A stretch of 64,000 nucleotides of DNA from Thermoleophilaceae bacterium (GTDB lineage: Bacteria; Actinomycetota; Thermoleophilia; Solirubrobacterales; Thermoleophilaceae), in the NCBI GenBank assembly GCA_040901445.1, contig JBBDYQ010000022.1, positions 1 through 64,000 of the forward strand. The letters are read 5' to 3'. The notes beneath the pieces are model-generated. The model saw only the letters and a program-made list of their open reading frames with translations. It ran no database searches and had not been told where the DNA came from. The position numbers and the translations under genes are program-made. Positions 1,731 to 17,396 of this stretch are shown here, in pieces. Each line of letters starts with the position of its first letter. Positions within the stretch are counted from its first letter, which is position 1.

Positions 1731-1863
1731 GTCCTGGCGCAGATCGTGAGCTGGCTAATGGGAGCGACGCAGCTCAAGGTGGACCAAGTGGGAGCCGATT
1801 AGTAGCCATAGAAGGACCGGAGGAGTAAGCTGAGGTTCTGACGGAACGGTGAGAGGAGCGAAG

Positions 1864-2235
1864 GTGCCCGTTCAAGACGTCATCGAGGAAGCGCAGCGCA
1901 TCGCGACAGATCGCGATCCTGCCGAGTTGGCCGGGGAGCTGCAGGAACTGCTCGGGCAGAAGCTCGTGGCCTTTGCTCTCGGGGACCGTCATCCGAAGAC
2001 CGTCGGTCGGTATGCCCGCGGTGAGCGGGCGCCCGAGCTCGAGGCGCATGCGCGCCTCGTCGACCTCTCTGTCGTGGTCCAGATCCTACGTGCAGGCATG
2101 CGGGAGAGCACAATCAAGAGCTGGATGTTGGGAGCGAACCCGAGGCTCAAGGGCAACGCGCCGATCGAGGCCTTCCACGAGGGTCGCCCATACGAGGTGA
2201 TGAGTGCCGCCAAGGCCTTCGTCAGTCGCCGGTAA
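1864..2235 (+). CDS. Xre/MbcA/ParS-type antitoxin of a RES toxin-antitoxin pair
   Basis: A 123-residue protein with an N-terminal helix-turn-helix-like region (TVGRYARGE) and a C-terminal DUF2384-like end (SWMLGANPRLKGNAPIE, then the VMSAAKAFV helix). That arrangement is the MbcA/ParS/Xre antitoxin family, which caps the RES toxin and represses its own promoter. The GTG at 1864 is preferred over the GTG at 1849 because GAGAGGAG at 1851-1858 then lies at normal spacing. The toxin gene follows after 42 bases in the same frame. The assignment rests on motif pattern and gene order. Confidence 0.75.
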   Translation: MPVQDVIEEAQRIATDRDPAELAGELQELLGQKLVAFALGDRHPKTVGRYARGERAPELEAHARLVDLSVVVQILRAGMRESTIKSWMLGANPRLKGNAPIEAFHEGRPYEVMSAAKAFVSRR

Positions 2236-2277
2236 GCGCGGACGGCGTCCGCGGCCCGGCATACGCTCCGGGGTCGC

Positions 2278-3024
2278 GTGCCGTTCGCCGACAACCCACC
2301 GACGTACCACGCCGTCAGCGTGCCCGCCGAGGGGTTCTGGCGGGTCACGACGTGGCCTGAGCCGTTCGATCCGCCGCCGCCTCCTCTCCCGATCGGCCAT
2401 CCCGACCTTCACGAGGACGATGCTGGTCGATGGGACGACCCTCACGGTGCGTTGAGGACGCTGTACTGCGCCACCGAGCCCGAGGGCGCGATCGGCGAGA
2501 AGCTCGGCCACTTCCGGATCGACCCCCGCATTCCTCGGCGGATCGAGGGGTTTTTCGAGAGCGAGCCCGACTCAGGCTACGAGGACGACTACCTGCTGCC
2601 TCAGCTCGACGCCGACGACGTCGCTGCATTCAACTGGACCCTGGCGTGGGCGCCGTCTGAACCCACCGCTCGGTGCCTTGATGTCACCCATTGGCGCAGC
2701 CACCGCGCGGTGCTCCGATGCGCGATCCCGCACCTCGTGGAGCACGGCCGCGCACAGCTAGACAGAAGCGCTCTCCTGGACGAACGCCGCAACTTGACGC
2801 GGCGACTCGCCGGCTGCTTCCGAGCGCTCGCAGCCAGGCCCGACGGAACACTGAGGGTCGCCGGCCTGCGGTACAAGAGCCGCCACGCGCCGGCCTGGGA
2901 GTGCTGGGCCCTGTGGGAGCCGCTTCCGCTGGACCCCAGCGAGGCCACCGGACAGACGGTGACGATTCAGACGCCGGAGCTTCGTCGCGCGGCCGAACGC
3001 CTGCCCGTCGTCCTCTTGGCCTAG
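2278..3024 (+). CDS. RES-domain toxin (NAD+-depleting type)
   Basis: The 248-residue product shows the RES family pattern: an N-terminal arginine in GFWRVTTW, then GRWDDPHGALRTLYCATEPE followed by a Glu-containing helix (AIGEKL), and near the C-terminus GLRYKSRHAPAWECWALWE. Characterised RES toxins such as MbcT destroy NAD+; the Arg, Tyr, Glu and Ser pocket residues all have candidates here. The only start in the 14 codons after the antitoxin stop is the GTG at 2278. It is longer than many RES proteins (150-200 residues) because of inserts. It forms an operon with the upstream antitoxin and lies just left of a tRNA-His scar, a typical island setting. Confidence 0.78.
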   Translation: MPFADNPPTYHAVSVPAEGFWRVTTWPEPFDPPPPPLPIGHPDLHEDDAGRWDDPHGALRTLYCATEPEGAIGEKLGHFRIDPRIPRRIEGFFESEPDSGYEDDYLLPQLDADDVAAFNWTLAWAPSEPTARCLDVTHWRSHRAVLRCAIPHLVEHGRAQLDRSALLDERRNLTRRLAGCFRALAARPDGTLRVAGLRYKSRHAPAWECWALWEPLPLDPSEATGQTVTIQTPELRRAAERLPVVLLA

Positions 3025-3222
3025 CTTCGACGGGTCACGGCCCAGAGGTGCCCCTCCGGTGAGGGCCTTAGCCGCGGCTTCCGGAAGTAGCCGCCGAGCG
3101 TTTAGGGGAGGGCGCAATTCCCGTGGCCATGGGTATCTCCAGCGCTCGGCTGCGTTGCGTCTTCCATCGGCTCGCGGGGGAGCGTCGGGAGGGCTGAGTA
3201 GAGCTCAGGCCGGGGCATCAAT

Positions 3223-3301
3223 CGAGGCATCGATCTGCCGCGCAACAATCGAATCACGCCGCCTCGAACCAGCCCGTCAAGACCCTACCTGCGCCAACTT
3301 G
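3223..3301 (+). repeat. Arm-like sequence upstream of tRNA-His scar 1, related to 16050-16140
   Basis: This stretch and 16050-16140 share CGAGGCATCGAT at the left end, GTCAAG in the middle, and an identical TGCGCCAACTTG (3290-3301 and 16129-16140) that ends exactly 14 bases before the shared tRNA part in both places. Equal spacing to the tRNA core suggests integrase arm or core sites from related elements. Confidence 0.5.
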
Positions 3302-3314
3302 ACCTCCATGCGGA

Positions 3315-3363
3315 CGCTTGTGGTCCAGGCGGTCGCGGGTTCGAGTCCCGTCGCTCACCCCTC
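3315..3363 (+). repeat. tRNA-His 3' fragment, att scar copy 1
   Basis: Forty-nine bases identical to 16154-16202. It starts in the anticodon loop (GTG anticodon at 3320-3322), continues with the anticodon-stem 3' strand, variable loop, the T arm (GCGGG TTCGAGT CCCGT) and the acceptor strand CGCTCAC. The 5' half (D arm, acceptor 5' strand) is absent, so it is not a functional tRNA. Partial 3' ends of this kind are what tyrosine integrases leave at the distal end of an element inserted into a tRNA gene. Confidence 0.8.
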
Positions 3364-3542
3364 AAAGCGCTGCAAAGCCGGGGTTTTGCTCTTCCGGCCG
3401 GGGTGAGCTCCTGGACGCCATTGCAGAGCTCGATCGGGGCGCTCTTCGCGAGTTCGTTGCAGAAATCCCTGCACAGAACGCGGTTTTCTCGCGGCTGCGC
3501 CCGAGCTTGCCTGCGCGCCATGGAAATGGTCTTCGTCGACGG

Positions 3543-4721
3543 TCAGTGCTGACCTGGGTTCTCGAGTACCTCGCGTACCCTGAGGGCTACATGCAGCTCC
3601 GAGGGACGCGTGGCGGGCGCCCGGCCGAGTTGCTCCTCGATGTTCCTGAGGCGATACTTGACGGTGTGGACATGGACGCCGAGTCGCGCCGATGCCGCGA
3701 CGGCGTTCTGGCCACTCTCGAGGTACGCGCGCAGCGTGTCGCGCAGCACCTCGGCCTTCGGGTCGTTGGCCGCGAGTTCACCGAGCTCGCGGCCAACGAG
3801 CTCACGCGCGAGCCGCTCGTCCTGGAGCAGAGCCACCTCAAGCGCGACGTCCGAGTAAAGGGTTAGTCGGGCACCTCGTCGGCGCGCGATGCGGAGTGCG
3901 TCCTGCGCCTGCCGGTGGCTGGCGACGAATCCCTCGACGCCTGCGAGGCAGTCTCCCGCTGTCACCACCGACGCCGTCTCCCCGCAGAGTTCCGTTAGCG
4001 CTCGCCGCTCAGTGTCCTGGTCCCGCGCTCTGATGGAGCCGAGCCAGGCCCATACGACATCCGTCTCGAGGGCCACGTTGAGGAGGCGCAGGTCGAGTCT
4101 CGACGCGAGCTCCGGTAGAGCTTCGGAGACGGGCGCGGCGCAGATCAGCGCACGGTGGATGAGGGTCTCGTCGTAGCCGACAGCGCTGAGGTCGCTCCGC
4201 CTGCCGGCCAGGGTTTCCTGCACGACGGTGACTGACTTCCGGGCGGGGCCACGGTGGTGTCGGCGCTCGTCCTCGTACTCCTCGGTCAGGACGCCGATCA
4301 TCCAGTCGATCATGGCGAAGGTGAAGCGCGAACCCAACACGAGCAGTTCGTGCTTGTCGCTGTCGCTTGCGTGTAGGGCGGTGACCTCCGCCACCCACGT
4401 GTCGGATAGCACCGCGTGGCTTACCCGGTAGCTCTGTGCGAACAGCGCCAGCGGCAGCCCTACGCGGGCGCCTGCCCGCGCCGCAAGGACTGCCTCCTCC
4501 GGGGGCCGTTCGGGGAGCGCGCGGCATTCGAGGGCGCGAAGTCCCGCCCTGACGTTCGCAGAGCACGAGGCACGTGCGACCTCGCGCAAACCCAGCGAGT
4601 CGAGCTCCGGAACCGCTGCGACGAGTTCGGCGACCATCTCGTCCGCGATCTGACCTGTCCGCGAGGCCAGGCGGTGCGTGATCTGCGGGATGTAATGCGT
4701 CGGGTCCGCTGTCGGTGGCAT
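3543..4721 (-). CDS. PucR-family transcriptional regulator
   Basis: A 392-residue regulator. The C-terminus carries the PucR-type helix-turn-helix: AYLESGQNAVAASARLGVHV followed by HTVKYRLRNIEEQLGR. Upstream is a GGDEF-like/CdaR middle region and an N-terminal helical region. The ATG at 4721 (MPPTADPTHY) is chosen; an upstream in-frame start at 4799 is possible but adds a low-complexity Arg-rich tail. Family members sense small molecules and control catabolic genes. It is transcribed divergently from the secreted hydrolase at 4879 with 157 bases between starts, so it probably controls that gene. Confidence 0.85.
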   Translation of the reverse strand: MPPTADPTHYIPQITHRLASRTGQIADEMVAELVAAVPELDSLGLREVARASCSANVRAGLRALECRALPERPPEEAVLAARAGARVGLPLALFAQSYRVSHAVLSDTWVAEVTALHASDSDKHELLVLGSRFTFAMIDWMIGVLTEEYEDERRHHRGPARKSVTVVQETLAGRRSDLSAVGYDETLIHRALICAAPVSEALPELASRLDLRLLNVALETDVVWAWLGSIRARDQDTERRALTELCGETASVVTAGDCLAGVEGFVASHRQAQDALRIARRRGARLTLYSDVALEVALLQDERLARELVGRELGELAANDPKAEVLRDTLRAYLESGQNAVAASARLGVHVHTVKYRLRNIEEQLGRAPATRPSELHVALRVREVLENPGQH

Positions 4722-4878
4722 GAGGCCTAGAGCGCTTCCGCGGGATCGATTATCGCTTTTGGCCACACCTGACGGATCGGGCCGGACGATTTGGCTCATC
4801 CAGTCAAGCCCGGCGGGTCGCCGGTCCCTACGGTCATCGCGCCGACGTGGCAACCCAACCAACGGGAGGAGAAACCCC

Positions 4879-5898
4879 GTGCAGATTAGACGTCAGGCCT
4901 TGATGTTCGTCGCAGTAACGGCTGCGATGGCGGTGTTCGTGACGCCCGCGGGAGCTTGGACCCGCACCGTCATCAATCCGTGCACCCCGGACTCAGCGAC
5001 GTCCTGCGAGTTCTTTGCGACGAAGTGGCATGAGGTGTACATGCCGACAGCCCCCGCACGTAACCAGTTGGCCATTTTCTTCCACGGGACCCTCGGGAAG
5101 CCCTCGAACAACCGCAAGATCGCGGAGTACCTGGCGGGCCAGGGCTTCCATGTGATGAGCGTCAAATACGACGCGGACACGACCGCGAAGTCGGCGTGCC
5201 CGGACTCGGTCGAAACAACCGATCCGAACTGCTTCCGCCGCTTCCGCGGCGAGTCGGTCTTCGGCGAGAACGTGTCCGACCCCGTGGGGCAGGCCTTCGA
5301 CCACTCGTCGATCTCAGTATCGAAGCCGAACTCGGTCATGAACCGGGTGCTGAACCTCGCGACCTACCTGTCCACCAACTACGCAGCTCAGGGATGGGCC
5401 CAGTTCCAGATGCGTGACGTGAACGGCAACTGCACGTCTACGAACACGACCTACAACACCTGCGACATGCGCTGGAGCCTCGCTGGAATCGGCGGGCACT
5501 CGCAGGGCAGCGGCATCGCGCTGTACCTGTCGAAGTTCTTTGGTCTGCGCCAGGTCGCGATGCTGTCGGGACCCCAGGACACCTGGGCCTCGAGCGCGGC
5601 GAACTGGATCGCCGAGGGCGGCTTCACTACCTCGTCCAGCGTGATGTGGGGCTTTGCCCACACCGCTGACGGCGAGTACTCGGGCCAGTCGCTCGCGTGG
5701 GGAGTGCTGGGCATCCCGGGTGGGTTGACAGACCAGGCTGTCGGTAGCCCGTGGGGCGGGAGCCACCGGCTGACCACATCGGTCGCGCCGGCGTGTATCC
5801 GTCCCACCGCCGCGCATGGCTCCACCGTTACGGACGATTGCACCCCGGGGACCCCGCCGATCTACCAGCCCGTTTGGCTGGCCACATACGGCGGCTGA
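4879..5898 (+). CDS. Secreted alpha/beta hydrolase
   Basis: A 339-residue exported hydrolase. The GTG at 4879 is set by GGGAGGAG at 4864-4871. A Sec signal peptide (positive start, hydrophobic VAVTAAMAVFV, cleavage after PAGA) is followed by IFFHGTLG (oxyanion loop), and the nucleophile elbow GGHSQGSG supplies the catalytic Ser. A late His candidate lies in GGSHRL. Several Cys residues suggest disulfides outside the cell. The substrate is unknown; lipase or esterase activity is inferred. It is divergent from the PucR gene. Confidence 0.8.
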   Translation: MQIRRQALMFVAVTAAMAVFVTPAGAWTRTVINPCTPDSATSCEFFATKWHEVYMPTAPARNQLAIFFHGTLGKPSNNRKIAEYLAGQGFHVMSVKYDADTTAKSACPDSVETTDPNCFRRFRGESVFGENVSDPVGQAFDHSSISVSKPNSVMNRVLNLATYLSTNYAAQGWAQFQMRDVNGNCTSTNTTYNTCDMRWSLAGIGGHSQGSGIALYLSKFFGLRQVAMLSGPQDTWASSAANWIAEGGFTTSSSVMWGFAHTADGEYSGQSLAWGVLGIPGGLTDQAVGSPWGGSHRLTTSVAPACIRPTAAHGSTVTDDCTPGTPPIYQPVWLATYGG

Positions 5899-6226
5899 CA
5901 TCAAGAACGGCGGGCGCGTTGGTCGAAGCGGACGAATGCGCCCGCCGCCGTTGGCCCATGCAGCCAAGAACGAAAGCGCAGTCGCGTCGTACCGTCTGCC
6001 GGCATGGGACAGGGGTACGCGTGAAAGCTCTCGACGCGCCGGCGGAGGGTGCCTCCGGCCGGCTGCACCCGCGATCGGGCTCGATCTCCCGACGTGGGGT
6101 CGTCGGGTGATTTCCCGACCCGTAAGCCGGTCAGCCTGCTACCCGCCCACTCAGGCTGAAAAATGGCGGCAAAGACTTGACCCGCGGGTAAAAAAGGCCT
6201 GTATCGTCGCCGAGCGGGAGGGCTTC
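5899..6226. other. Intergenic region upstream of the TetR operon
   Basis: About 330 bases between the secreted hydrolase and the TetR start. The only feature seen is the promoter near its right end. The frame of the TetR gene is open far upstream (to 5816), but that part has no domain and overlaps the hydrolase gene, so it is not taken as coding. Confidence 0.5.
6177..6205 (+). promoter_or_regulatory. Promoter of the TetR-led operon
   Basis: A -35 box TTGACC (6177-6182) and -10 box TGTATC (6200-6205) are separated by 17 bases. The spacer begins with the palindrome CCCGCGGG (6181-6188), a candidate for autoregulation by the TetR protein. The start codon lies 21 bases after the -10. Confidence 0.5.
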
Positions 6227-6853
6227 TTGGTAGCGGGCAGGGACATACGGCCGGGCCTCAAGGCGCACCGCGCGCGGTTACTGGTCGCGGCCCGTGAGAG
6301 CTTCGCGCGCGGCGGCTTCGACGGCACGACCATGGAGGGCGTCGCCCGGGCCGCCGGCGCGACGAAGCCGACGCTGTACGCGCACTTCGGCTCGAAGCGG
6401 CAGCTGTTCGATGCGACTGTCGACGCCGAGTGCGAGCGGCTCTTGGACTTCCTCTTCGCAGCCTACGGTCGCGCGCTAGCCGGTTCCCCGAGCCAGCTCA
6501 TGCGCGCGTGCATCGGCGAGGCCTTCGCCTACGCCGATCGCAGCCCGAACGGCTTCAAGCTGCTGTTCCGGTCCGCGCGATCCGCACGCGATGCCGAGCT
6601 CGTCGAGGACACCATCCAGCGGATCACGGCACGCGTGACCGAGATCGTCGAGCGCGAACTCAAGGCCGCTGGCCGGCCCGACCACGAGCGTGCACGCATG
6701 CAGGCCGCGGCGATAGTCGGCGTCTCGCATCACGCCGTGCTGCAAGAGGCGGTTGAGCCGACTGCCGACCGGGAGGCGGCGATCGACTTCGCCGCCTCGT
6801 TCGCGAGCGGCGGTTTCTTTGCCACCCTGCCGCCGAAGCGGGGCGTCGCGTGA
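6227..6853 (+). CDS. TetR/AcrR-family regulator
   Basis: A 208-residue repressor. The N-terminal DNA-binding domain reads LLVAARESFARGGFDGTTME, then GVARAAGATKPTLYAHFGSK with the KRQLF helix, a standard TetR domain; the rest is the ligand-binding helical domain. TTG at 6227 is chosen because GCGGGAGG lies at correct spacing and the promoter is 21 bases upstream. Its stop overlaps the GTG of the next gene by 4 bases, so it heads an operon of exported proteins reaching 11713. The ligand is unknown. Confidence 0.82.
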   Translation: MVAGRDIRPGLKAHRARLLVAARESFARGGFDGTTMEGVARAAGATKPTLYAHFGSKRQLFDATVDAECERLLDFLFAAYGRALAGSPSQLMRACIGEAFAYADRSPNGFKLLFRSARSARDAELVEDTIQRITARVTEIVERELKAAGRPDHERARMQAAAIVGVSHHAVLQEAVEPTADREAAIDFAASFASGGFFATLPPKRGVA

Positions 6854-7983
6854 AGCGCCCGGCGGTGGCGGCGGCGTTGCTTGCGCTTGCGGTACCGGTG
6901 ACAGCCCGGGCCCAGAGCGTTACGGTCTGCGCCGTACCGACGTACTGCGATGCGCGCGCGGCCTATGACTGGCAAGGGCCGAGCCGCAGCCAGGCGGTGG
7001 AGGTGCGCTCGCGGCGCAGTGGGGCCGTGTTGCGCGGCACTGTCTTCGCGCCCCCGGAGGGTCGGCCGCCGGGGGCGGCCGTAGTACTGCTGCCCGGCAG
7101 CGGCGGCCTCGGGAACGAGACGAACATGCACTGGCAGGCGCGTGACCTGGCTGCCGGCGGCTACGTCGTGCTCAGCCTGAGCCCCCAGGGGACCGGACGC
7201 TCAGACACCGCCGGCGACCCGCCGTGCCCGGCGGACCACCCGGTTGACCCGTGCCCCGGAATCCCCTATCAGCAGCTCGAGAACTGGCTCGACGCGGGGT
7301 CGAGCGGGCTCGACTTCGCGCTGTCTGACACGAATCCTTTCGCCGCGGCGACTGACCGTTCGCGCGCTGCGCTGGTCGGCTACTCACTCGGCGCCCGCGC
7401 AGTCAGCGTGCTTCAGGGCCGCGACGATCGCGTCGACGCGGCTGTCGCGCTCGACAACCTCGCGAGCGACGGGAACGGCGACGCCGGCTCGCCCAGCGGC
7501 GGTGGCGCCGCCGGCACGGTGATCGGCGGCGAGCTGCCCGGCGGTCCACCTGTCCCGGTTACGCCGCGTGTGCCGGCGATCGGTCTGGGATCAGACGGAC
7601 CGGGCCCTGGAAACACGAGTCCGTCCCGCGAGCAGAAGAAGACCGCCTACTCCCAGTGGCGCTCGAGCGGGCTGCCGACAATGGAGCTGGTCTTCCGCGG
7701 CGTCGCGCACGGTGACTTCTCGCAGAACCCGCGCAGCTCGAACAGCACCTACGCTCGCCTCTTCGCCCACTACACGCGGGCCTGGCTCGACCGCTATCTC
7801 GGGGGCGACGCGGGCGCCGTCGACCGGCTGCTCGCCGGCTCTGTAGCGGGCCGGACCACCACGGACTTCCTCAGCCTGGACTTCGCCTCGGCCGCATACC
7901 TGCCGGCGGACGACAACATCGACTCGGCGGACGACGGCATTGACTGCGACGACCTGACACACGACGCCGGGTGTCTCCGGTGA
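6850..7983 (+). CDS. Secreted alpha/beta hydrolase of the TetR operon
   Basis: A 377-residue protein with a clear signal peptide (VAAALLALAVPVTARAQS). The hydrolase core shows VVLLPGSGGLG (oxyanion region), LSPQGTGRSD, the nucleophile elbow VGYSLGARA (Ser), and a late GVAHGDFS with the catalytic His. A Gly/Pro-rich insert of about 60 residues separates the elbow from the His. The C-terminal tail is acidic with paired Cys (CDDLTHDAGC). It resembles dienelactone-hydrolase/lipase-like secreted enzymes. It overlaps the TetR gene (GTGA) and precedes the paralogue triplet by 17 bases, so all are probably co-expressed. Confidence 0.8.
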   Translation: MKRPAVAAALLALAVPVTARAQSVTVCAVPTYCDARAAYDWQGPSRSQAVEVRSRRSGAVLRGTVFAPPEGRPPGAAVVLLPGSGGLGNETNMHWQARDLAAGGYVVLSLSPQGTGRSDTAGDPPCPADHPVDPCPGIPYQQLENWLDAGSSGLDFALSDTNPFAAATDRSRAALVGYSLGARAVSVLQGRDDRVDAAVALDNLASDGNGDAGSPSGGGAAGTVIGGELPGGPPVPVTPRVPAIGLGSDGPGPGNTSPSREQKKTAYSQWRSSGLPTMELVFRGVAHGDFSQNPRSSNSTYARLFAHYTRAWLDRYLGGDAGAVDRLLAGSVAGRTTTDFLSLDFASAAYLPADDNIDSADDGIDCDDLTHDAGCLR

Positions 7984-8000
7984 GAACAAAGGGAGAGATC

Positions 8001-9197
8001 ATGCAAGGACTGCGATGCTCGCTGGCGGTTGTCGCCGCCGGCATGGCCCTCACCCTGCCCACCCCGGCCACCGCGGGGATCGAGCCGGGGGATGTGGCCT
8101 GGACCGAGGTCAGCGCGCTGCCGGGCCTCAGCATCAGCCCCGACCTCAACAACACCTACTACACCAGCGTCTACTCGGCCAGCAGCGCGCACGAGACCGC
8201 CATCCGCGGCTCCGTGCCGAACGCGCGCTACTGGTCAATTGCCGTGCTCGACCAAGCAGGGCGCGAGATCGCGAACCTCTCAGACGACGATATTGAAACG
8301 ACCGGCAACGGCTCCTACACGGTCCGCATCCGGCACGGCTGCGCTGGCCGGCCGAACTGCATGGACGTGTCAGGCGCGCCCGCCTCGGCGCTGCCGGCGC
8401 GGATGTTCTACAGGCTCTACGTCCCAAGCGACCGCACAGGCGGCGTCCCCCTGCCCGAGGTGGAGTACCGCACGCTCGACGGCGTTGACGTTCGCTCGCC
8501 GGTCCCCGCTGGGACCTGGACGGCCCTCATGCTGGGACTGCTCGAGCCGCTGCGCCCCGGCGAGCCGGCCCCCGAGGCCCTCGCAGGCCCGTCAGGCCTC
8601 GACCGCCCCGTCGCCACCCCCGCCGCCGACCCCGAGCCGCGCCGCTTCGACGGCCTCGGCGGCCAGCAGATCGAGACCCTCGCGGACGCGGGCGCTCCGG
8701 CGCCCGTCGTGGAAGCGCTGACGCAGGCGAAAGGTAGCGCCGGTCTGAACGCCACCGCCGACAACGACTACCTGATAGCGCAGTACACCTTCCGCAGCGG
8801 CAACCTCGTGCTTGCGGCGAAGGCGCCGTCGTACCGCTCGGGCGGTGCCGCGGTGAACGACCTCGGGCGCGCCGACGGCAGCGAGCAGGTCCGCTACTGG
8901 TCTGTCTGCACCGTTCAGAACACGCGGCCGGTCGAGTGTCTGCGTGACGAGCGCGTACAAGTCGATGCCGACGGGTTCTTCCGGATCGTGGTCGCTCCGG
9001 CCTGTCCGGTCGCGGGCTACAGCAATTGCCTGCGCGGCGGCGTGACGCCGAGCGTGAACAACGGCAACATCAACTACAGGAACCTGCTGGCCGCGGGCTC
9101 GTTCGCGAACGAGCGCGGGCCGCACGAGTGTCCGGCCGGCGTCTCGCAATTCTGCGGCGACTACGCGCTGCAGGCGCGTTACGTCCTGCGCGGCTGA
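8001..9197 (+). CDS. Secreted tandem-repeat protein, paralogue 1 of 3
   Basis: A 398-residue exported protein of unknown function. ATG at 8001 follows GGGAGAGATC; the signal peptide ends near PATAG. Two similar halves are visible. The first has VPNARYWSIAVLD and NGSYTVRIRHGC, followed by MFYRLYVPSDRTGGVPLPEV. The second has GNLVLAAKAPSY, SEQVRYWSVCTV and ADGFFRIVVAPACPVAGYSN. Each half repeats the pattern G-x-x-P/A-RYWS ... dGsy/F-x-I/V, so a duplicated beta-sandwich is likely; the pattern recalls DUF1214-like domains but this was not proven. It is 11 bases upstream of paralogue 2. Confidence 0.75.
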   Translation: MQGLRCSLAVVAAGMALTLPTPATAGIEPGDVAWTEVSALPGLSISPDLNNTYYTSVYSASSAHETAIRGSVPNARYWSIAVLDQAGREIANLSDDDIETTGNGSYTVRIRHGCAGRPNCMDVSGAPASALPARMFYRLYVPSDRTGGVPLPEVEYRTLDGVDVRSPVPAGTWTALMLGLLEPLRPGEPAPEALAGPSGLDRPVATPAADPEPRRFDGLGGQQIETLADAGAPAPVVEALTQAKGSAGLNATADNDYLIAQYTFRSGNLVLAAKAPSYRSGGAAVNDLGRADGSEQVRYWSVCTVQNTRPVECLRDERVQVDADGFFRIVVAPACPVAGYSNCLRGGVTPSVNNGNINYRNLLAAGSFANERGPHECPAGVSQFCGDYALQARYVLRG

Positions 9198-9208
9198 AGG
9201 AGGCAAGG

Positions 9209-10432
9209 ATGACAACGATGAAGACGATTCGCCGACTGATCTGGGTGACCGCGCTGGCGCTCGCCCTGTGGCCGGCAGCCTCGTTTGCGGCCACGCGGGC
9301 GGTCACGCCGACGTCGGCGTGGCAAAAGGTGGCGCCGAACGCGCTGAACGTCGCCTTCCCGGACGAGTACGCGGTCTACTACGTCATCCCGTACATCGCT
9401 GGGCCCGGCCTGCGCACGCTGGTCGAGGGCCAGGTTCCCGCCGCCCGCTACTGGTCGCACACGATCTACCAGACGCAAGGAGGGGCGCTCGACAACATCG
9501 ACGGCGACCGGATGGCGCTGGACGCCGACGGCAGCTACCGGATGACGATCGCGGACCGGTGTGCGGAAGCTCAGCGGAACTGCCTGAGCACGACCCGTGT
9601 GCAGCGCCCGACCCCGACCTTCGAGGGCATGCTCGTGTACCGGCTGTACGTGCCGGAGGACATCGCCTCCGGCCAGACCGGGGGCGTGCCCGTCCCGCGC
9701 GCCACATACGAGGCCGACGGCCCGGACGCCGAGGCGCGCCTGGACGCCCTCGACCTACCCGCAGCCGCGCGCGAGGCGCGCGACGTGGCGGTCTCACAGG
9801 CGGCGCTTGCGAGCCAGGAGCTCGTGTTCGAGCGCTCCATGCCGCTGTCCGGCCCGGTCCCGCAGCCCGACAACGACCCGCCGGTCCGGTCGTTCCGCTT
9901 CCACGGACACCAGGGCTCGGCGATCGACTACGCGCTCACCAAGGGCCTAATCTCGGACTCGCAGTGGGCGCTCCTGAACTCGACGCTGCCGAACCCGTCC
10001 GGCACGGGTGGTCCCTTCAGCGCGCCTGCGAACGAGTACACGTACATCTTCTACCAGCACGAGCGGGGCAACCTCGTGGTCAGCGCAAAGGCGCCGACGT
10101 ATGACCTGACCTCGTCGTCGCGCAACGCCTTCGGGCGCGACGACGGCGGCGAGCAGGTCCGCTACTGGTCGCTGTGCACGAACTCGTCGCTCACGCGCTA
10201 CATAGACTGCATCAAGGACGAGGACGTCGTGATCCCGCCAGGTGAGACCCACTTCGAGATCGTAGTCTCGCCAACGTGTCCGGTGGCGGGATACGCGAAC
10301 TGCCTGCTCTCCGGCCAAGAGGCCGTCGAGTTCGCGGTGGTCTACCGGAATCAGCTCGCCTCGGCGGCCTTCAAGGACCAGCAGCTGGCGGGCGAGTGGG
10401 CGTACGGAGGCCACTACGTCTCTCGCCCGTGA
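9209..10432 (+). CDS. Secreted tandem-repeat protein, paralogue 2 of 3
   Basis: A 407-residue paralogue of the preceding gene. AAGGAGG precedes the ATG at 9209; the signal peptide is hydrophobic (LIWVTALALALWPAASFAA). The N-terminal half has NVAFPDEYAVYYVIPY, VPAARYWSHTIYQ and DADGSYRMTIADRC; the linker has MLVYRLYVPEDIASG; the C-terminal half has GNLVVSAKAPTYD, GEQVRYWSLCTN and FEIVVSPTCPVAGYANCL. Paired Cys in matching places suggest disulfides. Its stop overlaps the GTG of paralogue 3 by 4 bases. Function unknown; in an operon with a secreted hydrolase, so substrate binding is an inference. Confidence 0.75.
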   Translation: MTTMKTIRRLIWVTALALALWPAASFAATRAVTPTSAWQKVAPNALNVAFPDEYAVYYVIPYIAGPGLRTLVEGQVPAARYWSHTIYQTQGGALDNIDGDRMALDADGSYRMTIADRCAEAQRNCLSTTRVQRPTPTFEGMLVYRLYVPEDIASGQTGGVPVPRATYEADGPDAEARLDALDLPAAAREARDVAVSQAALASQELVFERSMPLSGPVPQPDNDPPVRSFRFHGHQGSAIDYALTKGLISDSQWALLNSTLPNPSGTGGPFSAPANEYTYIFYQHERGNLVVSAKAPTYDLTSSSRNAFGRDDGGEQVRYWSLCTNSSLTRYIDCIKDEDVVIPPGETHFEIVVSPTCPVAGYANCLLSGQEAVEFAVVYRNQLASAAFKDQQLAGEWAYGGHYVSRP

Positions 10433-11713
10433 GGAGACTCGGCGCGACCCTGGCCGCGCTCTGTGCGCTCGCTGGCAGCGGCACGCCGAGCGCGACGGGG
10501 CAGGCGGGATCGGGCGACCGCGACTGCGTGTGGATCCTCGTCGACGAGCCCGACGCAGTGAACGTCGCCTACCCTGACGAGTACGCGAACTACTGGGGCA
10601 CGCTCGTGATGGCCATCCCGCCGGGTCACGAGCTCGTACTGCGCGGTCGGTTCCCGCGCGCGCTACATGTCGTTCAACGTATACGACGGGGCGCTGCGCC
10701 CGACCGACGCCCTTGCGGATCAGGAGATCGTGGCCGATGCGGGGTCGACCAACCCGTTCCTCGAGGGCGCCCGCCGCGATGCCGAGATGCGTGACTACAC
10801 GGTGCGGATCGTGCCAGGGACGCCGCCGCCCGGCGGCCGCGAGCCGAACACGGTCTACTTGGCGAGCGCCGGCCGCGCCGCGTACGAGGGCGGGATCCTC
10901 TATCGGGTCTACATCCCGGACCTCGGCACGGACGACACCGGTGGGGTTGGGCTGCCGGAAGTGCTCCTGCGCGACCCAGAGGGCGCGATGCGCACGATTC
11001 CCGCCCGCTGCGGCGCGGTGCAGGCGGACCTGCCGCCGACGCTTACCGAGGCCTACGCGAGCGCCGACGCGCCCGAGACCCCGGTCAGCCACCCGGCGAC
11101 CAACCCGCTCGACTGGGACGTCTTCTTCAACCTGCCCTACACCCAGGCCACGCTTAACACGCGAGGCACCCCGGCGAACGGTCCCGCGGCCGCGACCGTG
11201 CCGGCCGACCGGAGCGGGGGCTACCTGAGCAACGTGCACAACGCCTACGCCTACGCCTACGCGACCGGCCACCGCAGATTCGGCCAGGTGCTCGTCTTAC
11301 GCGGAAGGGCCCCGAGCGCCCCTGCGACGCGCGACGGCCCGGCGGTGATGGGCTCGGGCGAGTTGCGCTATTGGTCGATCTGCGAGAACGAGCGCCACAG
11401 CACGCGGTTCGTCGCCTGCCTCGCCGACGAGGACTTCGTCCTGGACGAGACGGGCTGGTTCACGCTCGTCGTCTCCAGCCCGGCGCAGCGGCCCGCCAAC
11501 GCGCGGCGCGAATGCGGGGTCAACTGGCTGCCCTGGGGTGCGAGCCCAGAGACGTTGCTCATCCTGCGCCACATGCTTCCGGCGCCGGGCTTTTCCCACG
11601 CGATCCAGCGCGTCGAGCGCCCCGGTGATGAGGATCGCGTCGTGGGTGACTACCTGCCGGGCGGGCAGCACACGAGCCGCACCAGCTTCGAAGCGCTCGG
11701 CTGTCGCATCTAA
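10429..11713 (+). pseudogene. Secreted tandem-repeat protein, paralogue 3 of 3, frameshifted
   Basis: Starts at GTG 10429 with a signal-like N-terminus, then NVAYPDEYANYWGTLV and LVLRGRFPRA in one frame. The matching continuation (RYMSFNVYDGALRPTDAL) is in another frame, joined at about 10655-10665 inside a CG-dinucleotide run. From there the protein continues to 11713 with ILYRVYIPDLGTDDTGG, GELRYWSICENE and WFTLVVSSPAQRP, the same duplicated plan as its neighbours. One unit of CG gained or lost explains the shift. It is either a recent inactivation or a sequencing error; the remainder is well preserved. Confidence 0.7.
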
Positions 11714-11773
11714 CGGACAAGGGCGGCGGTCGCGTTTTGGTGTTTCGCACAAGTGGCGCGGCGCCGTTGCCCG

Positions 11774-11779
11774 TAGCTT
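11774..11779 (+). promoter_or_regulatory. -10 element of a leaderless-type promoter before the desaturase
   Basis: TAGCTT lies 6 bases before an ATG at 11786. The same string CGTAGCTTCGCGGCATGG stands directly before comEA (63741-63758), where the ATG is that of comEA. Confidence 0.45.
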
Positions 11780-11785
11780 CGCGGC

Positions 11786-11917
11786 ATGGGAATTAACGTC
11801 GCAGCCGCCGACGGCCTGACCGCCTACCACGACCACCGGATGCCGGACGGCCGGGACTTGCGCGGCCGACCCGAAGGGAGTGCTGCCAGCGATGAGGAGA
11901 CGGGGCGATGGAGCTAG
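11786..11917 (+). CDS. Possible leader peptide overlapping the desaturase start
   Basis: A 43-codon frame beginning at the ATG placed 6 bases after the TAGCTT -10 box, ending at 11915-11917, 10 bases inside the following gene. No domain is visible; it is rich in Asp, Arg and Gly. Position and overlap suggest an upstream frame translated leaderlessly and coupled to the desaturase. It could equally be noise in high-GC DNA. Confidence 0.3.
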   Translation: MGINVAAADGLTAYHDHRMPDGRDLRGRPEGSAASDEETGRWS

Positions 11918-13926
11918 CAACGGCGCCCGCGGCGGCTGTCTCCCACGCAGTCCCTCATCCTGGCGAGCCGGTTCCGGTCCTCGCGCTCCCAACCGTGGGG
12001 ATCTTCTTCGGTGCGCTCGCGGCCTGGGGCCTCGCCACTTGGGCGGCGATCGGCGACCTCGCCTCACCGTGGGCGACGATCCCGGTGCACGCGGCGGTCA
12101 CCTTCGTCATGTTCACGGTCGCCCACGAAGCCACCCACTACGCGATCAGCCGCACCCGCTGGGTGAACGGTCTTTTCGGCCGCCTGGCGGCGCCGTTCGT
12201 GGCTGCGTGGGGGTCGTTCCCGGTGTTCAGCTACATCCACATAGAGCATCACCGTCACTCGAACGACGAAGGCTCAGACCCCGACACCTACGCCAGCCAC
12301 GGCCGCTGGTGGCAGCTCCCGTTCCGCTGGGCGAGCATCGACCTCTGGTACACGCGCTTCTACGCCAGCCGGTGGCGCAGCCGCTCCGCGGCCGAGGTTG
12401 CCGAGACCGCTGCCGTGGCCGTGCTCTCGGCCGTCGGCATCGCCGCCTGCGCCGCGACCGGCAACCTGTGGACGCTCGCCGTCGCCTACGTGCTTCCGCA
12501 GCGGATCGGACTGCTCGTGCTCGCTTGGTGGTTCGACTGGCTGCCTCACCATGGGCTCGCCGAGACGCAGCGCGAGAACCGGTACCGTGCGGCCCGCGCG
12601 CGGGTCGGGATGGAGTGGCTGTTCACGCCGCTGATGCTTTCCCAGAACTACCACTTGGTCCACCACCTGCACCCCTCGATCCCCTTTTACCGTTACCTGG
12701 CCGCCTGGCGGCGAAACGAGGAGGCCTATCTTGAGCGGGACGCGGCGATCGCGACGGTCTTCGGCCACCAGCTGACGTCGGAGGAGTATCGCGTCTGGCG
12801 TGAGCTCGACAGTTTCTCCCTCGCCCGCCTGCGACCGGTCGAGGTTCCGGAGGGCTCTTCGGCCCCTCGCGCCGTATTTGCCCGCGTTCCGGTCGCCGAG
12901 GTAAAACGGCTGACCGAGGACAGCGTCCTGATTACCTTCGACGTGCCCGAGGCACTGCGCGACCAGTTCGGCTTCACGCACGGCCAGCACCTCACCGTGC
13001 GGACCGATCTTGGCGGGGAGGGCGTCCGCCGCAACTACTCGATCTGCTCGGCGGCTACCGGCGGCCCGCTTCGGATCGCCGTCAAGCGCATCCCCGACGG
13101 AGCCTTCTCGACTTTTGCGATGCAGCAGCTCGTGGCCGGCGACGAACTCGAGCTGATGACCCCGACGGGGCGGTTCGGGGCGGAGCTGGATCCTCTTGCA
13201 GCCAAGCACTACGTCGCGATCGCCGCCGGCAGCGGAATTACGCCGATCCTGTCGATCCTCGCGACGACGCTCGAGGTCGAGGCCGAGAGCCGCTTCACCC
13301 TCATCTACGGCAACCGCACGAGGGCTTCGACGATGTTCCGCGACGAGCTCGACGAGCTCGAGTTGCGCTACTCGGACCGGCTCGAGATCCTCCACGTCGT
13401 CTCGCGGGAGCCGCAGTCCGAGCTGCTCAGTACCGGCCGCATCGACCGCGAGAAGCTTGAGATTCTGCTCGCGACCACCCTGCCGCCCGACGAGATCGAC
13501 GAGTGGTTCCTCTGCGGGCCGCTCGGGCTGACTGAGACGGCGCGTGAGACTCTGCTCGAGCATGGGGTCCACCCCGAGCGCGTCCGCCTCGAGCTGTTCT
13601 ACGGCTACGACGCTGCAAGCAGCTCCTCGACCGCGCGAGAGACGATCGTGCCATGCGTGGCGAGCTTCATGCTCGACGGGGCCGAGTACATCGTCGGCCT
13701 CGAAGGTGACGAGTCGATTCTCGAAGCGGCGCTGCGGGTGCGAAGCGACGTGCCCTACGCGTGTATGGGCGGCGCTTGCGGAACCTGCCGCGCGAAGCTC
13801 GTCTCCGGCAACCTCGAGATGGACCACAACTTCGCGCTCGGCCAGGACGACCTCGATCGCGGCTACGTCCTCACCTGCCAGTCGCACCCAACGACGCCGC
13901 AGGTGAGAGTCGACTATGACGGCTGA
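11908..13926 (+). CDS. Membrane di-iron desaturase/hydroxylase fused to a 2Fe-2S flavin reductase
   Basis: A 672-residue two-part enzyme. Residues 1-300 are a fatty-acid desaturase-type membrane domain with the histidine boxes HEATH (73-77), HIEHH (111-115) and HLVHH (249-253), between hydrophobic segments. Residues about 315-560 are a ferredoxin-NADP reductase unit (RRNYSICSAA for FAD, AAGSGITPI for NADPH, LELFYG). The C-terminus is a plant-type ferredoxin with PYACMGGACGTCRA and a last Cys in LTCQSHP. The reductase half resembles PaaK/KshB-type reductases. The fusion should deliver electrons from NAD(P)H straight to the di-iron site; the substrate (acyl chain, alkane, carotenoid or sterol) cannot be read from sequence. 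Confidence 0.85.
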   Translation: MELATAPAAAVSHAVPHPGEPVPVLALPTVGIFFGALAAWGLATWAAIGDLASPWATIPVHAAVTFVMFTVAHEATHYAISRTRWVNGLFGRLAAPFVAAWGSFPVFSYIHIEHHRHSNDEGSDPDTYASHGRWWQLPFRWASIDLWYTRFYASRWRSRSAAEVAETAAVAVLSAVGIAACAATGNLWTLAVAYVLPQRIGLLVLAWWFDWLPHHGLAETQRENRYRAARARVGMEWLFTPLMLSQNYHLVHHLHPSIPFYRYLAAWRRNEEAYLERDAAIATVFGHQLTSEEYRVWRELDSFSLARLRPVEVPEGSSAPRAVFARVPVAEVKRLTEDSVLITFDVPEALRDQFGFTHGQHLTVRTDLGGEGVRRNYSICSAATGGPLRIAVKRIPDGAFSTFAMQQLVAGDELELMTPTGRFGAELDPLAAKHYVAIAAGSGITPILSILATTLEVEAESRFTLIYGNRTRASTMFRDELDELELRYSDRLEILHVVSREPQSELLSTGRIDREKLEILLATTLPPDEIDEWFLCGPLGLTETARETLLEHGVHPERVRLELFYGYDAASSSSTARETIVPCVASFMLDGAEYIVGLEGDESILEAALRVRSDVPYACMGGACGTCRAKLVSGNLEMDHNFALGQDDLDRGYVLTCQSHPTTPQVRVDYDG

Positions 13927-14092
13927 GGCGTAGCCCCTGGGCACCTCGACGCACCCGCGCGGCGGTTACTCGTCGGCCACCGTTCCAGCGGGCGTGGCCG
14001 TCGGCCGAGACGCGCGTAATCGCGCACGCTTTCGAAGCGCTCCAGCCCCGCTCACGCAGTAGCCTTGACCCAGATGACCCCGGCCCCGGCTC

Positions 14093-14136
14093 GTGGTCCA
14101 GGCGGTCGCGGGTTCGAGTCCCGTTGCTCACCTCTC
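14093..14136 (+). repeat. tRNA-His 3' fragment, att scar copy 2
   Basis: Forty-four bases matching scars 1 and 3 with two differences (T at 14125 and at 14133), beginning exactly at the GTG anticodon (14093-14095) and running to the acceptor end. The upstream arm shared by scars 1 and 3 is missing here, so this junction came from a different element or has lost its arm. Confidence 0.78.
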
Positions 14137-14142
14137 GGAAGG

Positions 14143-14168
14143 CCCTGCGTAGCGGGGTCTTTTCTCTT
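14143..14168 (+). terminator. Intrinsic terminator behind tRNA-His scar 2
   Basis: Stem CCCTGC (14143-14148), loop GTA, stem GCGGGG (14152-14157), followed by TCTTTTCTCTT. Decayed versions stand behind scar 1 and scar 4, so the tRNA 3' end was copied together with its terminator. Confidence 0.6.
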
Positions 14169-14466
14169 GTTCGGCCGTTCGGGACATCAATCGCATGCCG
14201 CGGACGGCGCGCTTCCTCGCCGTCAGAGCGATGACGGCATGGAGGATCAGCACCGTGGGACGACGTCCACACGGGATCTGATACCGCTCAGTAGCCGCGT
14301 TGCTCGTGTGGCAGCGAGGCTTCGAGGTCTTGCCGCCGCTGGCTCTTCTTGCTCGCGGTCAGCTTGTGCGGCTTGCAGAGCAGGCAGCCTGCGCGTCGGT
14401 GCTTCGGGCGGTGCCGACGGTGATGCATCGCGCTGATCGTAGGCGACGTCCGCGCGGCTCCGGAGC

Positions 14467-14736
14467 ATGCCCGCTGTGCCGACGGTCAGCCGTTTCTACG
14501 GGATCACGATCCAGATGTTCTTCAAGGAGCATGGCATTCCGCACTTCCACGCCCGTTACGCAGGGCAGATTGCCGTTTACTCAGTTGGGCCGTTCGAGCG
14601 TATTCGCGGCCAGCTACCTACACGTGCCGAGCGGCTGATCCACGAGTGGGCCGAGTTGCACCGCGCCGAGTTGATGCGAAACTGGGAGCTGGCGAGAGCA
14701 GGCAAGCCACTGGACCGAATCGAGCCGTTGAAATGA
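14467..14736 (+). CDS. DUF4160 domain protein
   Basis: An 89-residue protein with the family hallmarks FYGITIQMFFKEHGIPHFHA, then RYAGQIAVYSV and a helical end (EWAELHRAELMRNWELARAG). It overlaps the next gene by 4 bases (ATGA). DUF4160 genes are very often paired with DUF2442 genes and behave like a toxin-antitoxin-type or mobile cargo pair, but no biochemical activity is established. It sits between two tRNA-His scars, so it is island cargo. Confidence 0.8.
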   Translation: MPAVPTVSRFYGITIQMFFKEHGIPHFHARYAGQIAVYSVGPFERIRGQLPTRAERLIHEWAELHRAELMRNWELARAGKPLDRIEPLK

Positions 14737-15011
14737 GCGAGATCCACGACATCATCGAAGTTGAGGTCGTCGGAAAGCACGCGCTTCGCGTGACCTTTGA
14801 CGATGGAGCGGTTCGAGAGGTTGATCTCGGAGGTCACCTCGACGGACCCGTCTTCGAACCCCTGCGTGATCCGGCGCTGTTCTCCCAGGTGCAGGTCGAC
14901 CCGGAGTCCGGGACAGTCACCTGGCCCACCGGCGCCGATCTCGACCCGATCATCGTCTACGAAGGACTGCCACCGCTCCACGCGCGCGCCGTACGCGAGG
15001 CCGCAGCCTGA
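14733..15011 (+). CDS. DUF2442 domain protein
   Basis: A 92-residue partner of the DUF4160 gene. It shows the typical VEVVGKHALRVTFDDGAVRE, then DLGGHLDGPVFEPLRDPALF and GTVTWPTGADLDP. The ATG at 14733 overlaps the DUF4160 stop, indicating translational coupling. Function unknown; the pair is proposed to work together. Confidence 0.8.
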   Translation: MSEIHDIIEVEVVGKHALRVTFDDGAVREVDLGGHLDGPVFEPLRDPALFSQVQVDPESGTVTWPTGADLDPIIVYEGLPPLHARAVREAAA

Positions 15012-15156
15012 CATTCAATCGGGCCGCCGGTCCCGGATTCGGTGCGTCAGCCGGTGAAGTTCTGCGATCTCCTGGCGTCGCTTGGAGTTCGAGTAGCGTC
15101 CCATCAGGGACCTTCGCGCTTGAGGGGATGGGATCCTCTGGCGGGCTAGCGAGAAA

Positions 15157-15219
15157 AAGCAGGGACCGGGTCGGTCTCCCGGCTCGTCTCCGACACGGGC
15201 GCGCCGTCGGTCCCTGCTT
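15157..15219 (-). terminator. Intrinsic terminator of the cupredoxin gene
   Basis: Twelve-base inverted repeat AAGCAGGGACCG (15157-15168) and CGGTCCCTGCTT (15208-15219). Read on the minus strand, the stem follows the cupredoxin stop by 20 bases and is followed by TTTTTCTC, as in a rho-independent terminator. It may also stop transcripts coming from the DUF2442 gene. Confidence 0.65.
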
Positions 15220-15239
15220 GAGCCCGGCCCGGTGTCCGG

Positions 15240-15761
15240 CTATAAGCTCGGGGTGACCTCCACCGTTCCGGTCATACCCACGCCCGCGTGGTGGACGCAG
15301 AGATAGCTGTACGTACCGGGCTCCTCGAAAGTCACCGTGAACGCGTGGTCGTTGCCGTTCATGCGGACCAGCTCCGGCTGGTTCGGCTCGAAGCCCTGCT
15401 CCCCTGCCGTCCCCCCGATCTGCGGGTCGGAGAATGTGACGGAGTGGCAGTGGTTCGCGAGCCACTCCCACGTGACCGATTCGCCGGCCTCGATCGTCGT
15501 GTTCGAACCCTTGCTGTCCCTGTCGATGAAGCTGAAGCCCACGACGAGCGCTTCCCCGGCCGAGGGCGTCTCGGGCGCGGCCTGGAGGTTCTTCGCGCAG
15601 TCGTGCCCGAGCGGGTCGAAGACCGGCGTGAGCGGGAAGAGGTGAACCGCGTGCGCAGGTTGAACCCCGACCGCCAGCACCCCGAGAAGCACGGGCACCG
15701 CCGCCACACCGAGGCGCCGGCACATGCGCAGAGCCAGACTTCGCGCGTCATTCACTGCCAT
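15240..15761 (-). CDS. Secreted cupredoxin (plastocyanin-like blue copper protein)
   Basis: A 173-residue exported protein. ATG at 15761 is set by GGGAGGT 8 bases upstream; the signal peptide is LGVAAVPVLLGVLAVGVQ ending PAHA. The cupredoxin fold carries the copper ligands: His in NHCHSVTF, then Cys, His and Met in YSYLCVHHAGVGMTG. VTWEWLANHCHSV resembles plastocyanin-like electron carriers. It has its own terminator and stands alone, so its redox partner is unknown. Confidence 0.82.
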   Translation of the reverse strand: MAVNDARSLALRMCRRLGVAAVPVLLGVLAVGVQPAHAVHLFPLTPVFDPLGHDCAKNLQAAPETPSAGEALVVGFSFIDRDSKGSNTTIEAGESVTWEWLANHCHSVTFSDPQIGGTAGEQGFEPNQPELVRMNGNDHAFTVTFEEPGTYSYLCVHHAGVGMTGTVEVTPSL

Positions 15762-16153
15762 GGGGCACCACCTCCCGCTAGACCCACCCGAGATCATCTC
15801 GGAAAGCGCGGGGCGAGGCAAGCGCGCGTTACGTCAGCCGTGGCGGGCGACGTCTACCTGTCTGCCGTCGGCCACAGACCGTTCACGCCTCGCTGCGTCA
15901 CATGAAACCCCTCTAGCGCGAGAAGGACTGCGCCCGTCGCGGGAGTTCGCGTCCTTGGCGAGGTCGATCGCGGTATCGGATCGAAGACGACGGTGAACGT
16001 GAACGGCGCGACGGAGCCGGCCACCGTACGCGCCGCGTCGGACCCTTCGCGAGGCATCGATCCGGGCATCTGTGCGCCCTGCGACAAACCGGATGGGTGG
16101 CCGCGAACCAGACTTGTCAAGGCGTTCTTGCGCCAACTTGGCCTGTAGTGCCC
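15762..16153. other. Intergenic region leading into tRNA-His scar 3
   Basis: No gene seen. The right part (16050-16140) is the arm-like sequence shared with 3223-3301. Confidence 0.5.
16050..16140 (+). repeat. Arm-like sequence upstream of tRNA-His scar 3
   Basis: Matches 3223-3301 in several blocks: CGAGGCATCGAT at the left, CGAACCAG, GTCAAG, and TGCGCCAACTTG ending 14 bases before the tRNA core. It suggests that the elements ending at scars 1 and 3 used related integrases. Confidence 0.5.
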
Positions 16154-16202
16154 CGCTTGTGGTCCAGGCGGTCGCGGGTTCGAGTCCCGTCGCTCACCCC
16201 TC
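16154..16202 (+). repeat. tRNA-His 3' fragment, att scar copy 3
   Basis: Identical over 49 bases to scar 1. It has the GTG anticodon (16159-16161), T arm and acceptor 3' strand but no 5' half. The downstream terminator present behind scar 2 is missing. The overlapping minus-strand gene ends inside this fragment. Confidence 0.8.
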
Positions 16203-16580
16203 GGAAGGCGGCACGGCGGACGGAAAGTCGTCGATCACCATGACGAGCTTGTCGTGATGCCAGATCGCCCGTAGCTCGGGGCGGCTGAGATCGTGGAGGA
16301 TCGCGTCCGCGGGTGGAATTCCCGCGGTCCGGATCAGCTCCTCGACGCGTCGGTGCGCTTCCAGCAGCATCTTCGCCTGCTCGCCAGGGCCGTCGACGCC
16401 GGATTGGCGCCACGTGCGCGCCATGTCGGCCACAGCGTCGGCTTCCCACGTGAAGGTCTGCTCACCTTTCGAGTAGGCACAGGAGAGCGCGCCCGACCGA
16501 TGGTGCTGCCAGAGGTCGGGTGGGGACATCTCGGCCTCGAGGGTGTGCATCAAGAGGCATTGTGCGTCGGTCGAATCCAT
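16194..16580 (-). CDS. Hypothetical protein ending in tRNA-His scar 3
   Basis: A 128-residue soluble protein of normal composition (for example TWRQSGVDGPGEQAKMLLEA and ELRAIWHHDKLVMVIDD). No family recognised. Its last codons (PPSEG and stop) are made of the tRNA fragment, so the natural C-terminus may have been replaced when the element inserted. The start (ATG 16580) is uncertain because no clear ribosome binding site was found. Confidence 0.5.
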   Translation of the reverse strand: MDSTDAQCLLMHTLEAEMSPPDLWQHHRSGALSCAYSKGEQTFTWEADAVADMARTWRQSGVDGPGEQAKMLLEAHRRVEELIRTAGIPPADAILHDLSRPELRAIWHHDKLVMVIDDFPSAVPPSEG

Positions 16581-16710
16581 GCGGATAGGGTCGGACGGTT
16601 CGCGTTACGGCTCAACGCGCGAGTGCAACGATTTGCTTCTCAGTCCGTCACGTCGCAAGTGTCCCGCTCCGGTAGCTCAAGGGCCACGGGCAGGGCTGTC
16701 GTTCGAGTGT

Positions 16711-16741: not shown

Positions 16742-16779
16742 CGGAAGGGCCTGCATAGCGACGCGTTTCTCGTTGTTTG

Positions 16780-17379: not shown

Positions 17380-17396
17380 GCGGGCCCGCCCGGAGC

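What the first reader, a model, noticed from the sequence alone, without database searches (positions are those of the whole stretch)
6227..11713. TetR operon of a secreted hydrolase and three duplicated secreted proteins
TetR, a secreted alpha/beta hydrolase and three paralogues are packed with 4-base overlaps or gaps of 11-17 bases behind one good promoter. Each paralogue has two similar halves (RYWS motif, then a DGSY/DGFF strand), so the ancestral domain was duplicated and the gene then triplicated. Function is unknown; a substrate-binding or uptake role beside the hydrolase is plausible. This is the best candidate here for an undescribed functional module.
Basis: partly seen in the sequence, partly recalled or inferred. 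Interest (0 to 1): 0.65.

Follow-up and report, generated by a model that had tools for sequence, protein, structure and literature searches.

The report
TetR-linked duplicated DUF1214-like secreted proteins
A soil-type actinobacterium carries a regulator, a secreted ester-cutting enzyme and three related secreted proteins in one gene row; the three proteins belong to an unnamed but widespread family, built from two copies of a known but unexplained domain, that probably helps bacteria handle fatty or oily compounds outside the cell.

Summary
The gene row is real: TetR (6227-6853), secreted alpha/beta hydrolase (6850-7983), P1 (8001-9197), P2 (9209-10432), P3 (from 10429). P3 is frameshifted in this assembly near 10653-10664. 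P1-P3 match nothing in Pfam, NCBIfam or PDB sequences. AlphaFold models of P2 and an intact P3 relative both match PDB 6ans and the DUF1254/DUF1214 structures VPA0735 and VPA0106. Profile comparison makes each protein a tandem of two DUF1214-like domains, and that duplication predates the whole family. The family occurs across Actinomycetota and in some Pseudomonadota (Limnobacter, a Pseudomonas plasmid). The hydrolase is not its fixed partner. An adjacent TetR is conserved (7 of 70 adjacent genes against 1 of 398 others). Other partners vary but share a theme: sulfatase plus GDSL lipase, GDSL lipase, alkyl sulfatase, DUF1329, or DUF1302/DUF1329/YCF48/MMPL. Best reading: a TetR-derepressed operon whose secreted proteins bind or present lipophilic esters or their products. 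The fold and the TetR link are shown. Ligand, induction and partnership are inferred.

The parts
6177..6192 (.). Candidate TetR operator TTGACCCGCGGGTAAA (14 of 16 bases palindromic), overlapping the -35 hexamer TTGACC (6177-6182); -10-like TGTATC at 6200-6205
   Evidence: A palindrome this good is reached by 160 of 500 shuffles, so it is weak alone. The layout matches TTGACAATnTGTCAATAAGG between TetR and the family gene in Solirubrobacterales loci L064-L068. TTGAC-n3-8-GTMAA occurs once in 64 kb (pattern chosen after the fact).
6227..6853 (+). TetR-family regulator (TTG start)
   Evidence: TetR_N E 6.7e-18; best NCBIfam similarity FasR, E 5e-20, far below its cut-off
6850..7983 (+). Secreted alpha/beta hydrolase, signal peptide-like N-terminus, GYSLG (Ser179), His287
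   Evidence: PETase/DLH/Abhydrolase_1 below cut-off; 7cwq E 1.7e-4
8001..9197 (+). P1, secreted protein of two DUF1214-like domains (about 8148-8450 and 8784-9134)
9209..10432 (+). P2, secreted protein of two DUF1214-like domains (about 9356-9658 and 10031-10354); AlphaFold model pLDDT 77.5, pTM 0.77
10429..10668 (+). P3, 5' part in frame with the GTG start at 10429; leaves the family frame after RFPRA
   Evidence: (match 10450-10662 E 2.7e-11)
10653..10664 (+). Reading-frame change in a GCGCGC run within P3
10667..11713 (+). P3, 3' part, the most conserved family member in the window
   Evidence: match 10655-11707 E 2.6e-133
11908..13926 (+). Neighbour 194 bases downstream: fatty-acid-desaturase-type di-iron domain fused to FAD/NAD reductase and 2Fe-2S domains; possible functional partner, linkage not shown

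Best explanation
The region is a TetR-regulated operon for extracellular handling of a lipophilic substrate. Proposed working: (1) TetR binds a palindrome overlapping the -35 box of its own promoter and shuts the operon. (2) A lipophilic effector, such as a fatty acid or hydrolysis product, releases it. (3) The secreted alpha/beta hydrolase cleaves an ester outside the membrane. (4) P1, P2 and, if functional, P3 are secreted, cysteine-bearing proteins of two DUF1214-like beta domains that bind or present the substrate or its products. Shown: gene order, secretion-type N-termini, hydrolase motif, predicted fold, domain duplication, conserved TetR linkage across lineages. Inferred: steps 1 and 2, the ligand class, and binding rather than catalysis by P1-P3.
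For: Fold: models of P2 (pLDDT 77.5) and of the P3-type relative L054 (80.7) both rank PDB 6ans first (E 5.0e-16 and 1.1e-13, probability 1.00), then VPA0735 and VPA0106 (E 2e-9 to 2e-8). Profiles: DUF1214 domain against family half 1, probability 83.7%, E 8.1e-6; controls at most 0.2%. TetR: in a set with one locus per related group, 7 of 70 genes adjacent to a family gene are TetR against 1 of 398 others (Fisher p 9e-6). All nine Limnobacter-type loci have a divergent TetR and an AT-rich palindrome (TTAATACC..GTATTAA type) between it and the family gene. Lipophile theme: family genes sit before DUF1329 in those nine loci; beside DUF1302, DUF1329, YCF48 and MMPL, with an outer-membrane transport protein and a sterol desaturase nearby, on plasmid pPAMH19; in a sulfatase-GDSL lipase gene row in six Solirubrobacterales loci; beside a GDSL lipase (L199) and an alkyl sulfatase (L201). 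DUF1329/DUF1302 proteins are needed for Tween20 use in Pseudomonas putida (PMC10866462), and a DUF1329 protein, AmeB, for growth on monoterpenes in Castellaniella (PMC6394551).
Against: Most family loci have neither a TetR nor a lipid gene next door; some sit among unrelated genes, for example ribosomal protein genes in L156. The partner varies and was noticed after the fact. Foldseek TM-scores are modest (0.35-0.58) and the models rest on 25-26 sequences. DUF1214 function is itself unknown. The window's palindrome is not significant alone. P3, the most conserved member, is broken in this assembly.
Confidence: 0.45

Rival explanations
1. P1-P3 are enzymes in their own right: the VPA0735-like double beta domain carries an active site of unknown chemistry, and the hydrolase works in the same pathway.
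For: Strongly conserved polar residues across the family (R166, Y168, R389, D103, D342, N145 in L054 numbering). Rows with sulfatase and GDSL lipase fit a multi-step pathway.
Against: No characterised enzyme was found with this fold: the PDB matches are named uncharacterised or putative proteins. P1 and P2 lose several residues conserved in other members (the GSxNPF segment is absent), unusual for a shared active site.
Confidence: 0.2
2. P1-P3 are structural or adhesive cell-envelope proteins (beta-sandwich modules), and the hydrolase is only a fellow member of a TetR regulon.
For: Secretion-type N-termini, conserved cysteine pair, beta-rich fold; weak Foldseek matches to adhesin and carbohydrate-binding domains such as 4b4p and 2xom. 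Limnobacter members have lipobox-like N-termini (own reading of the sequences).
Against: The adhesin and carbohydrate-binding matches are at least four orders of magnitude weaker in E-value than the DUF1214-type ones and cover part of the protein. Repeated TetR and lipid or hydrolase neighbours are not expected for a structural protein.
Confidence: 0.15
3. The row is a chance or recent assembly: a TetR-P3-type gene pair joined by a hydrolase and two fast-evolving copies, now decaying.
For: P3 is frameshifted. P1/P2 have long branches and no close relative in 399 genomes of the class. The TetR-hydrolase-family order was found nowhere else. Third-position G+C in the first 17 kb is lower (about 0.72-0.91) than further on (mostly about 0.95).
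Against: P1, P2 and the hydrolase are intact with strong third-position G+C bias and tight spacing. In L164 TetR and a family gene also overlap by 4 bases on one strand.
Confidence: 0.2

Closest known systems
VPA0735-like / DUF1254-DUF1214 proteins (PDB 2p3y, 3vb9, 3u07)
   Same: Two beta-rich domains in one protein; Foldseek probability 1.00 for two models; the DUF1214 motifs FWSLTMYD, DGSlxIY and RxYxP align with the family's RYWSxxxYD, YT and RVYVPD motifs.
   Different: No Pfam DUF1254/DUF1214 hit at E up to 10 for any of 26 members. Here both halves resemble each other and half 1 resembles DUF1214; DUF1254 itself shows no clear sequence match.
PDB 6ans, uncharacterised protein of Burkholderia cenocepacia
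   Same: Best structural match of both models over about 400 columns.
   Different: Only 10-13% identity; its own family and function were not found in the held literature.
DUF1302/DUF1329/YCF48/MMPL gene set and AmeABCD of Castellaniella (hydrophobe transport)
   Same: Family members neighbour this set on plasmid pPAMH19 and DUF1329 in Limnobacter-type loci.
   Different: The window has no such transport genes beside it; the family is not known to be homologous to any of these components.
TetR regulators with lipid effectors (FasR, PsrA)
   Same: Best NCBIfam similarities: FasR for the window and L065 TetRs, PsrA for the Limnobacter TetR.
   Different: All scores lie far below the equivalog cut-offs; no effector is known.

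Membership tests
DUF1214 (PF06742) | Match to the Pfam model over its curated cut-off | tested here: not met
   No hit at E up to 10 for any of 26 members; the own genome holds no PF06742 match
DUF1214 (PF06742) | Sequence-profile similarity to the DUF1214 domain | tested here: met
   hhalign probability 83.7%, E 8.1e-6 over 100 columns for half 1; half 2 only 5.3%; controls at most 0.2%. Remote homology, not membership.
VPA0735-like fold | Double beta-domain fold as in 2p3y, 3vb9, 3u07 | tested here: met
   Foldseek probability 1.00, E 2e-9 to 2e-8, TM 0.35-0.44, two models; predicted structures, not solved ones
DUF1254 (PF06863) | N-terminal DUF1254 domain | tested here: not met
   DUF1254 region against family halves: probability 1.4-1.7%
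Alpha/beta hydrolase fold (window gene 6850-7983) | Nucleophile elbow GxSxG plus His (and acid) | tested here: met
   GYSLG with Ser179, AHG with His287; acid residue not assigned; Pfam PETase, DLH and Abhydrolase_1 all below cut-off
TetR family | TetR_N DNA-binding domain | tested here: met
   E 6.7e-18, 64.7 bits against cut-off 24
FasR / PsrA type regulators | Equivalog score | tested here: not met
   72 of 330 bits (FasR), 47.5 of 300 bits (PsrA, Limnobacter TetR)

The most novel reading that the evidence does not exclude
A so far unnamed protein family of tandem DUF1214-like domains, shared by Actinomycetota and some Pseudomonadota, is a general TetR-controlled accessory for lipophilic substrates outside the cytoplasmic membrane, pairing in different lineages with unrelated ester hydrolases or with the DUF1302/DUF1329/MMPL system. 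This would give the DUF1214 fold its first function.
Probability: 0.35. Interest if true: 0.6.

Novelty: new variant of a known kind. Interest (0 to 1): 0.42.

Why it matters
DUF1254/DUF1214 proteins have several solved structures and no function that I found in the held literature. A family with the same fold, no database model, a conserved local TetR, and repeated neighbours for lipid-ester hydrolysis and hydrophobe transport gives a testable route to a function. The Limnobacter gene triplet TetR / family gene / DUF1329, with a recurring palindrome between the divergent genes, is a simple place to find the inducer.

Tried and rejected
Pfam, NCBIfam, PHROGs and PDB sequence searches for P1-P3: nothing relevant. 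Viral contigs: no relatives. The full 26-row alignment was too diverse for a pattern scan; a four-row one worked. Hydrolase as fixed partner: rejected. Simple triplication: neither shown nor rejected. Strong sigma-70 promoter and terminators: none by consensus scan. Literature on 6ans, pPAMH19 and DUF1214 function: nothing useful found. Foldseek hits to Cry toxins, SIDT1/2 and seed storage proteins: low TM-scores (about 0.1-0.2), treated as generic beta-sandwich matches.

Full report
OBSERVATION. Third-position G+C of 0.85-0.91 in all supports coding. P3 is not intact in this assembly: the frame opened at 10429 matches the family to about 10662 (E 2.7e-11) and the rest matches in another frame from 10655 (E 2.6e-133). 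The switch lies in a GCGCGC run. With one genome I cannot tell a slip of sequencing from a young pseudogene.

HALVES. Aligning family halves as profiles gives 95.8% probability, E 7.7e-9 over 100 columns; the middle region as control gives at most 0.2%. The complete members examined span both halves, so this duplication is old and not specific to the window.

FAMILY. Neither Pfam, NCBIfam nor PDB sequences know P1-P3. Whole-genome searches find relatives in 29 of 151 near genomes with P2, 16 of 346 across the phylum with a profile and 9 of 369 in the class that holds Limnobacter; named organisms are Solirubrobacterales, Conexibacter and Limnobacter and Pseudomonas aeruginosa plasmid pPAMH19. 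One contig is labelled Bifidobacterium breve (L071), but its 73% G+C and its place in the tree beside Solirubrobacterales genes suggest a mislabelled metagenome bin. P3 is the typical member (45% identity to L054); P1 and P2 are divergent sisters (34-36% to each other, 100/99 support) known only here. A tree joining all three is not rejected (p-AU 0.234), so in-place triplication with two fast copies remains possible.

FOLD. AlphaFold2 models of P2 (mean pLDDT 77.5, pTM 0.77) and of L054 (80.7, 0.80) give the same three PDB groups: 6ans (E 5.0e-16 / 1.1e-13), VPA0735 (2p3y, 3vb9) and VPA0106 (3u07), all probability 1.00. Viral-library matches include a DUF1214 domain-containing protein. A DUF1254/DUF1214 alignment from the same bacterial order hits 3u07, 3vb9 and 2p3y by sequence, and 6ans only at E 1.3. 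Against that alignment the family scores 52% (E 1.4e-4); the DUF1214 domain alone against half 1 scores 83.7% (E 8.1e-6), against half 2 only 5.3%; DUF1254 scores below 2%. I conclude remote homology to DUF1214, with both halves of that type, but not membership of PF06742. A 'VPA0735-like' fold is already listed in PMC2744874.

NEIGHBOURS. The hydrolase has relatives in 21 of 151 near genomes including the own one, none beside a family gene outside the window; one (G138, L175) has a TetR directly upstream. The TetR link is real: with an iterated TetR profile, 7 of 70 genes adjacent to family genes are TetR against 1 of 398 non-adjacent in a set with one locus per related group (Fisher p 9e-6). 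The profile was seeded with TetRs found near family genes, a possible bias, though it also found the window's two unrelated TetRs. Nine Limnobacter-type loci have TetR divergent from the family gene, a palindrome of TTAATACC..GTATTAA type between them in all nine, and DUF1329 directly downstream. Five Solirubrobacterales loci (L064-L068) have TTGACA-bearing promoters, palindromic in some, between TetR and the family gene; the window's TTGACCCGCGGGTAAAAAAGG has the same layout, though its palindrome alone is not significant (160 of 500 shuffles).

LIPOPHILE THEME. In six Solirubrobacterales loci the family gene leads a gene row with a sulfatase and a GDSL lipase. In one genome of the Limnobacter-containing class it is followed at 9 bases by a GDSL lipase, with a P450 and a DUF1329 gene nearby; in another by an alkyl sulfatase. 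On pPAMH19 it lies beside DUF1302, DUF1329, YCF48 and MMPL, with an outer-membrane transport protein and a sterol desaturase nearby. Published work ties DUF1329/DUF1302 to Tween20 growth (PMC10866462) and monoterpene growth and tolerance (PMC6394551). Next to the window operon lies a desaturase-reductase fusion. These neighbours were noted after the fact and no background rate was computed for them.

MECHANISM. I propose TetR autoregulation released by a lipophilic effector, secretion of the hydrolase, and P1-P3 as binding or presenting proteins for the ester or its products. Confidence 0.45. Rivals are that P1-P3 are enzymes, that they are structural proteins, or that the row is a chance or decaying assembly.

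VERDICT. The row exists, the family has no model but uses a known, uncharacterised fold, the conserved partner is TetR rather than this hydrolase, and a role with lipophilic compounds is the best-supported guess.

Noticed in passing
window 1849-3024: A protein with an Rv2175c_C domain followed by a RES-domain protein: the layout of a RES-type toxin-antitoxin pair.
   Followed up: partly
window 1-17400 against 18625-64000: Third-position G+C is about 0.72-0.91 on the left side and mostly about 0.95 from the trigger factor/clpP/clpX genes on; the left end of this contig may be a less conserved or acquired region.
   Followed up: no
window 4720-5898: A second secreted alpha/beta-hydrolase-like protein (GHSQG) just upstream of the operon; no Pfam family over cut-off.
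   Followed up: partly
window 11908-13926: Fatty-acid-desaturase-type domain fused to FAD/NAD reductase and 2Fe-2S ferredoxin domains: a self-contained di-iron oxygenase or desaturase.
   Followed up: partly
G000 contig C25, 204643-207979 (L173): Further relatives of the hydrolase lie in a cluster elsewhere in the same genome, without family genes.
   Followed up: partly
L176 (NZ_LN809998.1, 8666-33859): Plasmid pPAMH19 carries, between Tn3/IS elements and a mercury-resistance operon, an apparent lipophile island (outer membrane transport protein, sterol desaturase, SDR, family gene, DUF1302, DUF1329, YCF48, MMPL).
   Followed up: partly
L071 (CAMCUD010000012.1): A contig labelled Bifidobacterium breve has 73% G+C and family genes closest to a Solirubrobacterales genome; probably a mislabelled metagenome bin.
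   Followed up: no
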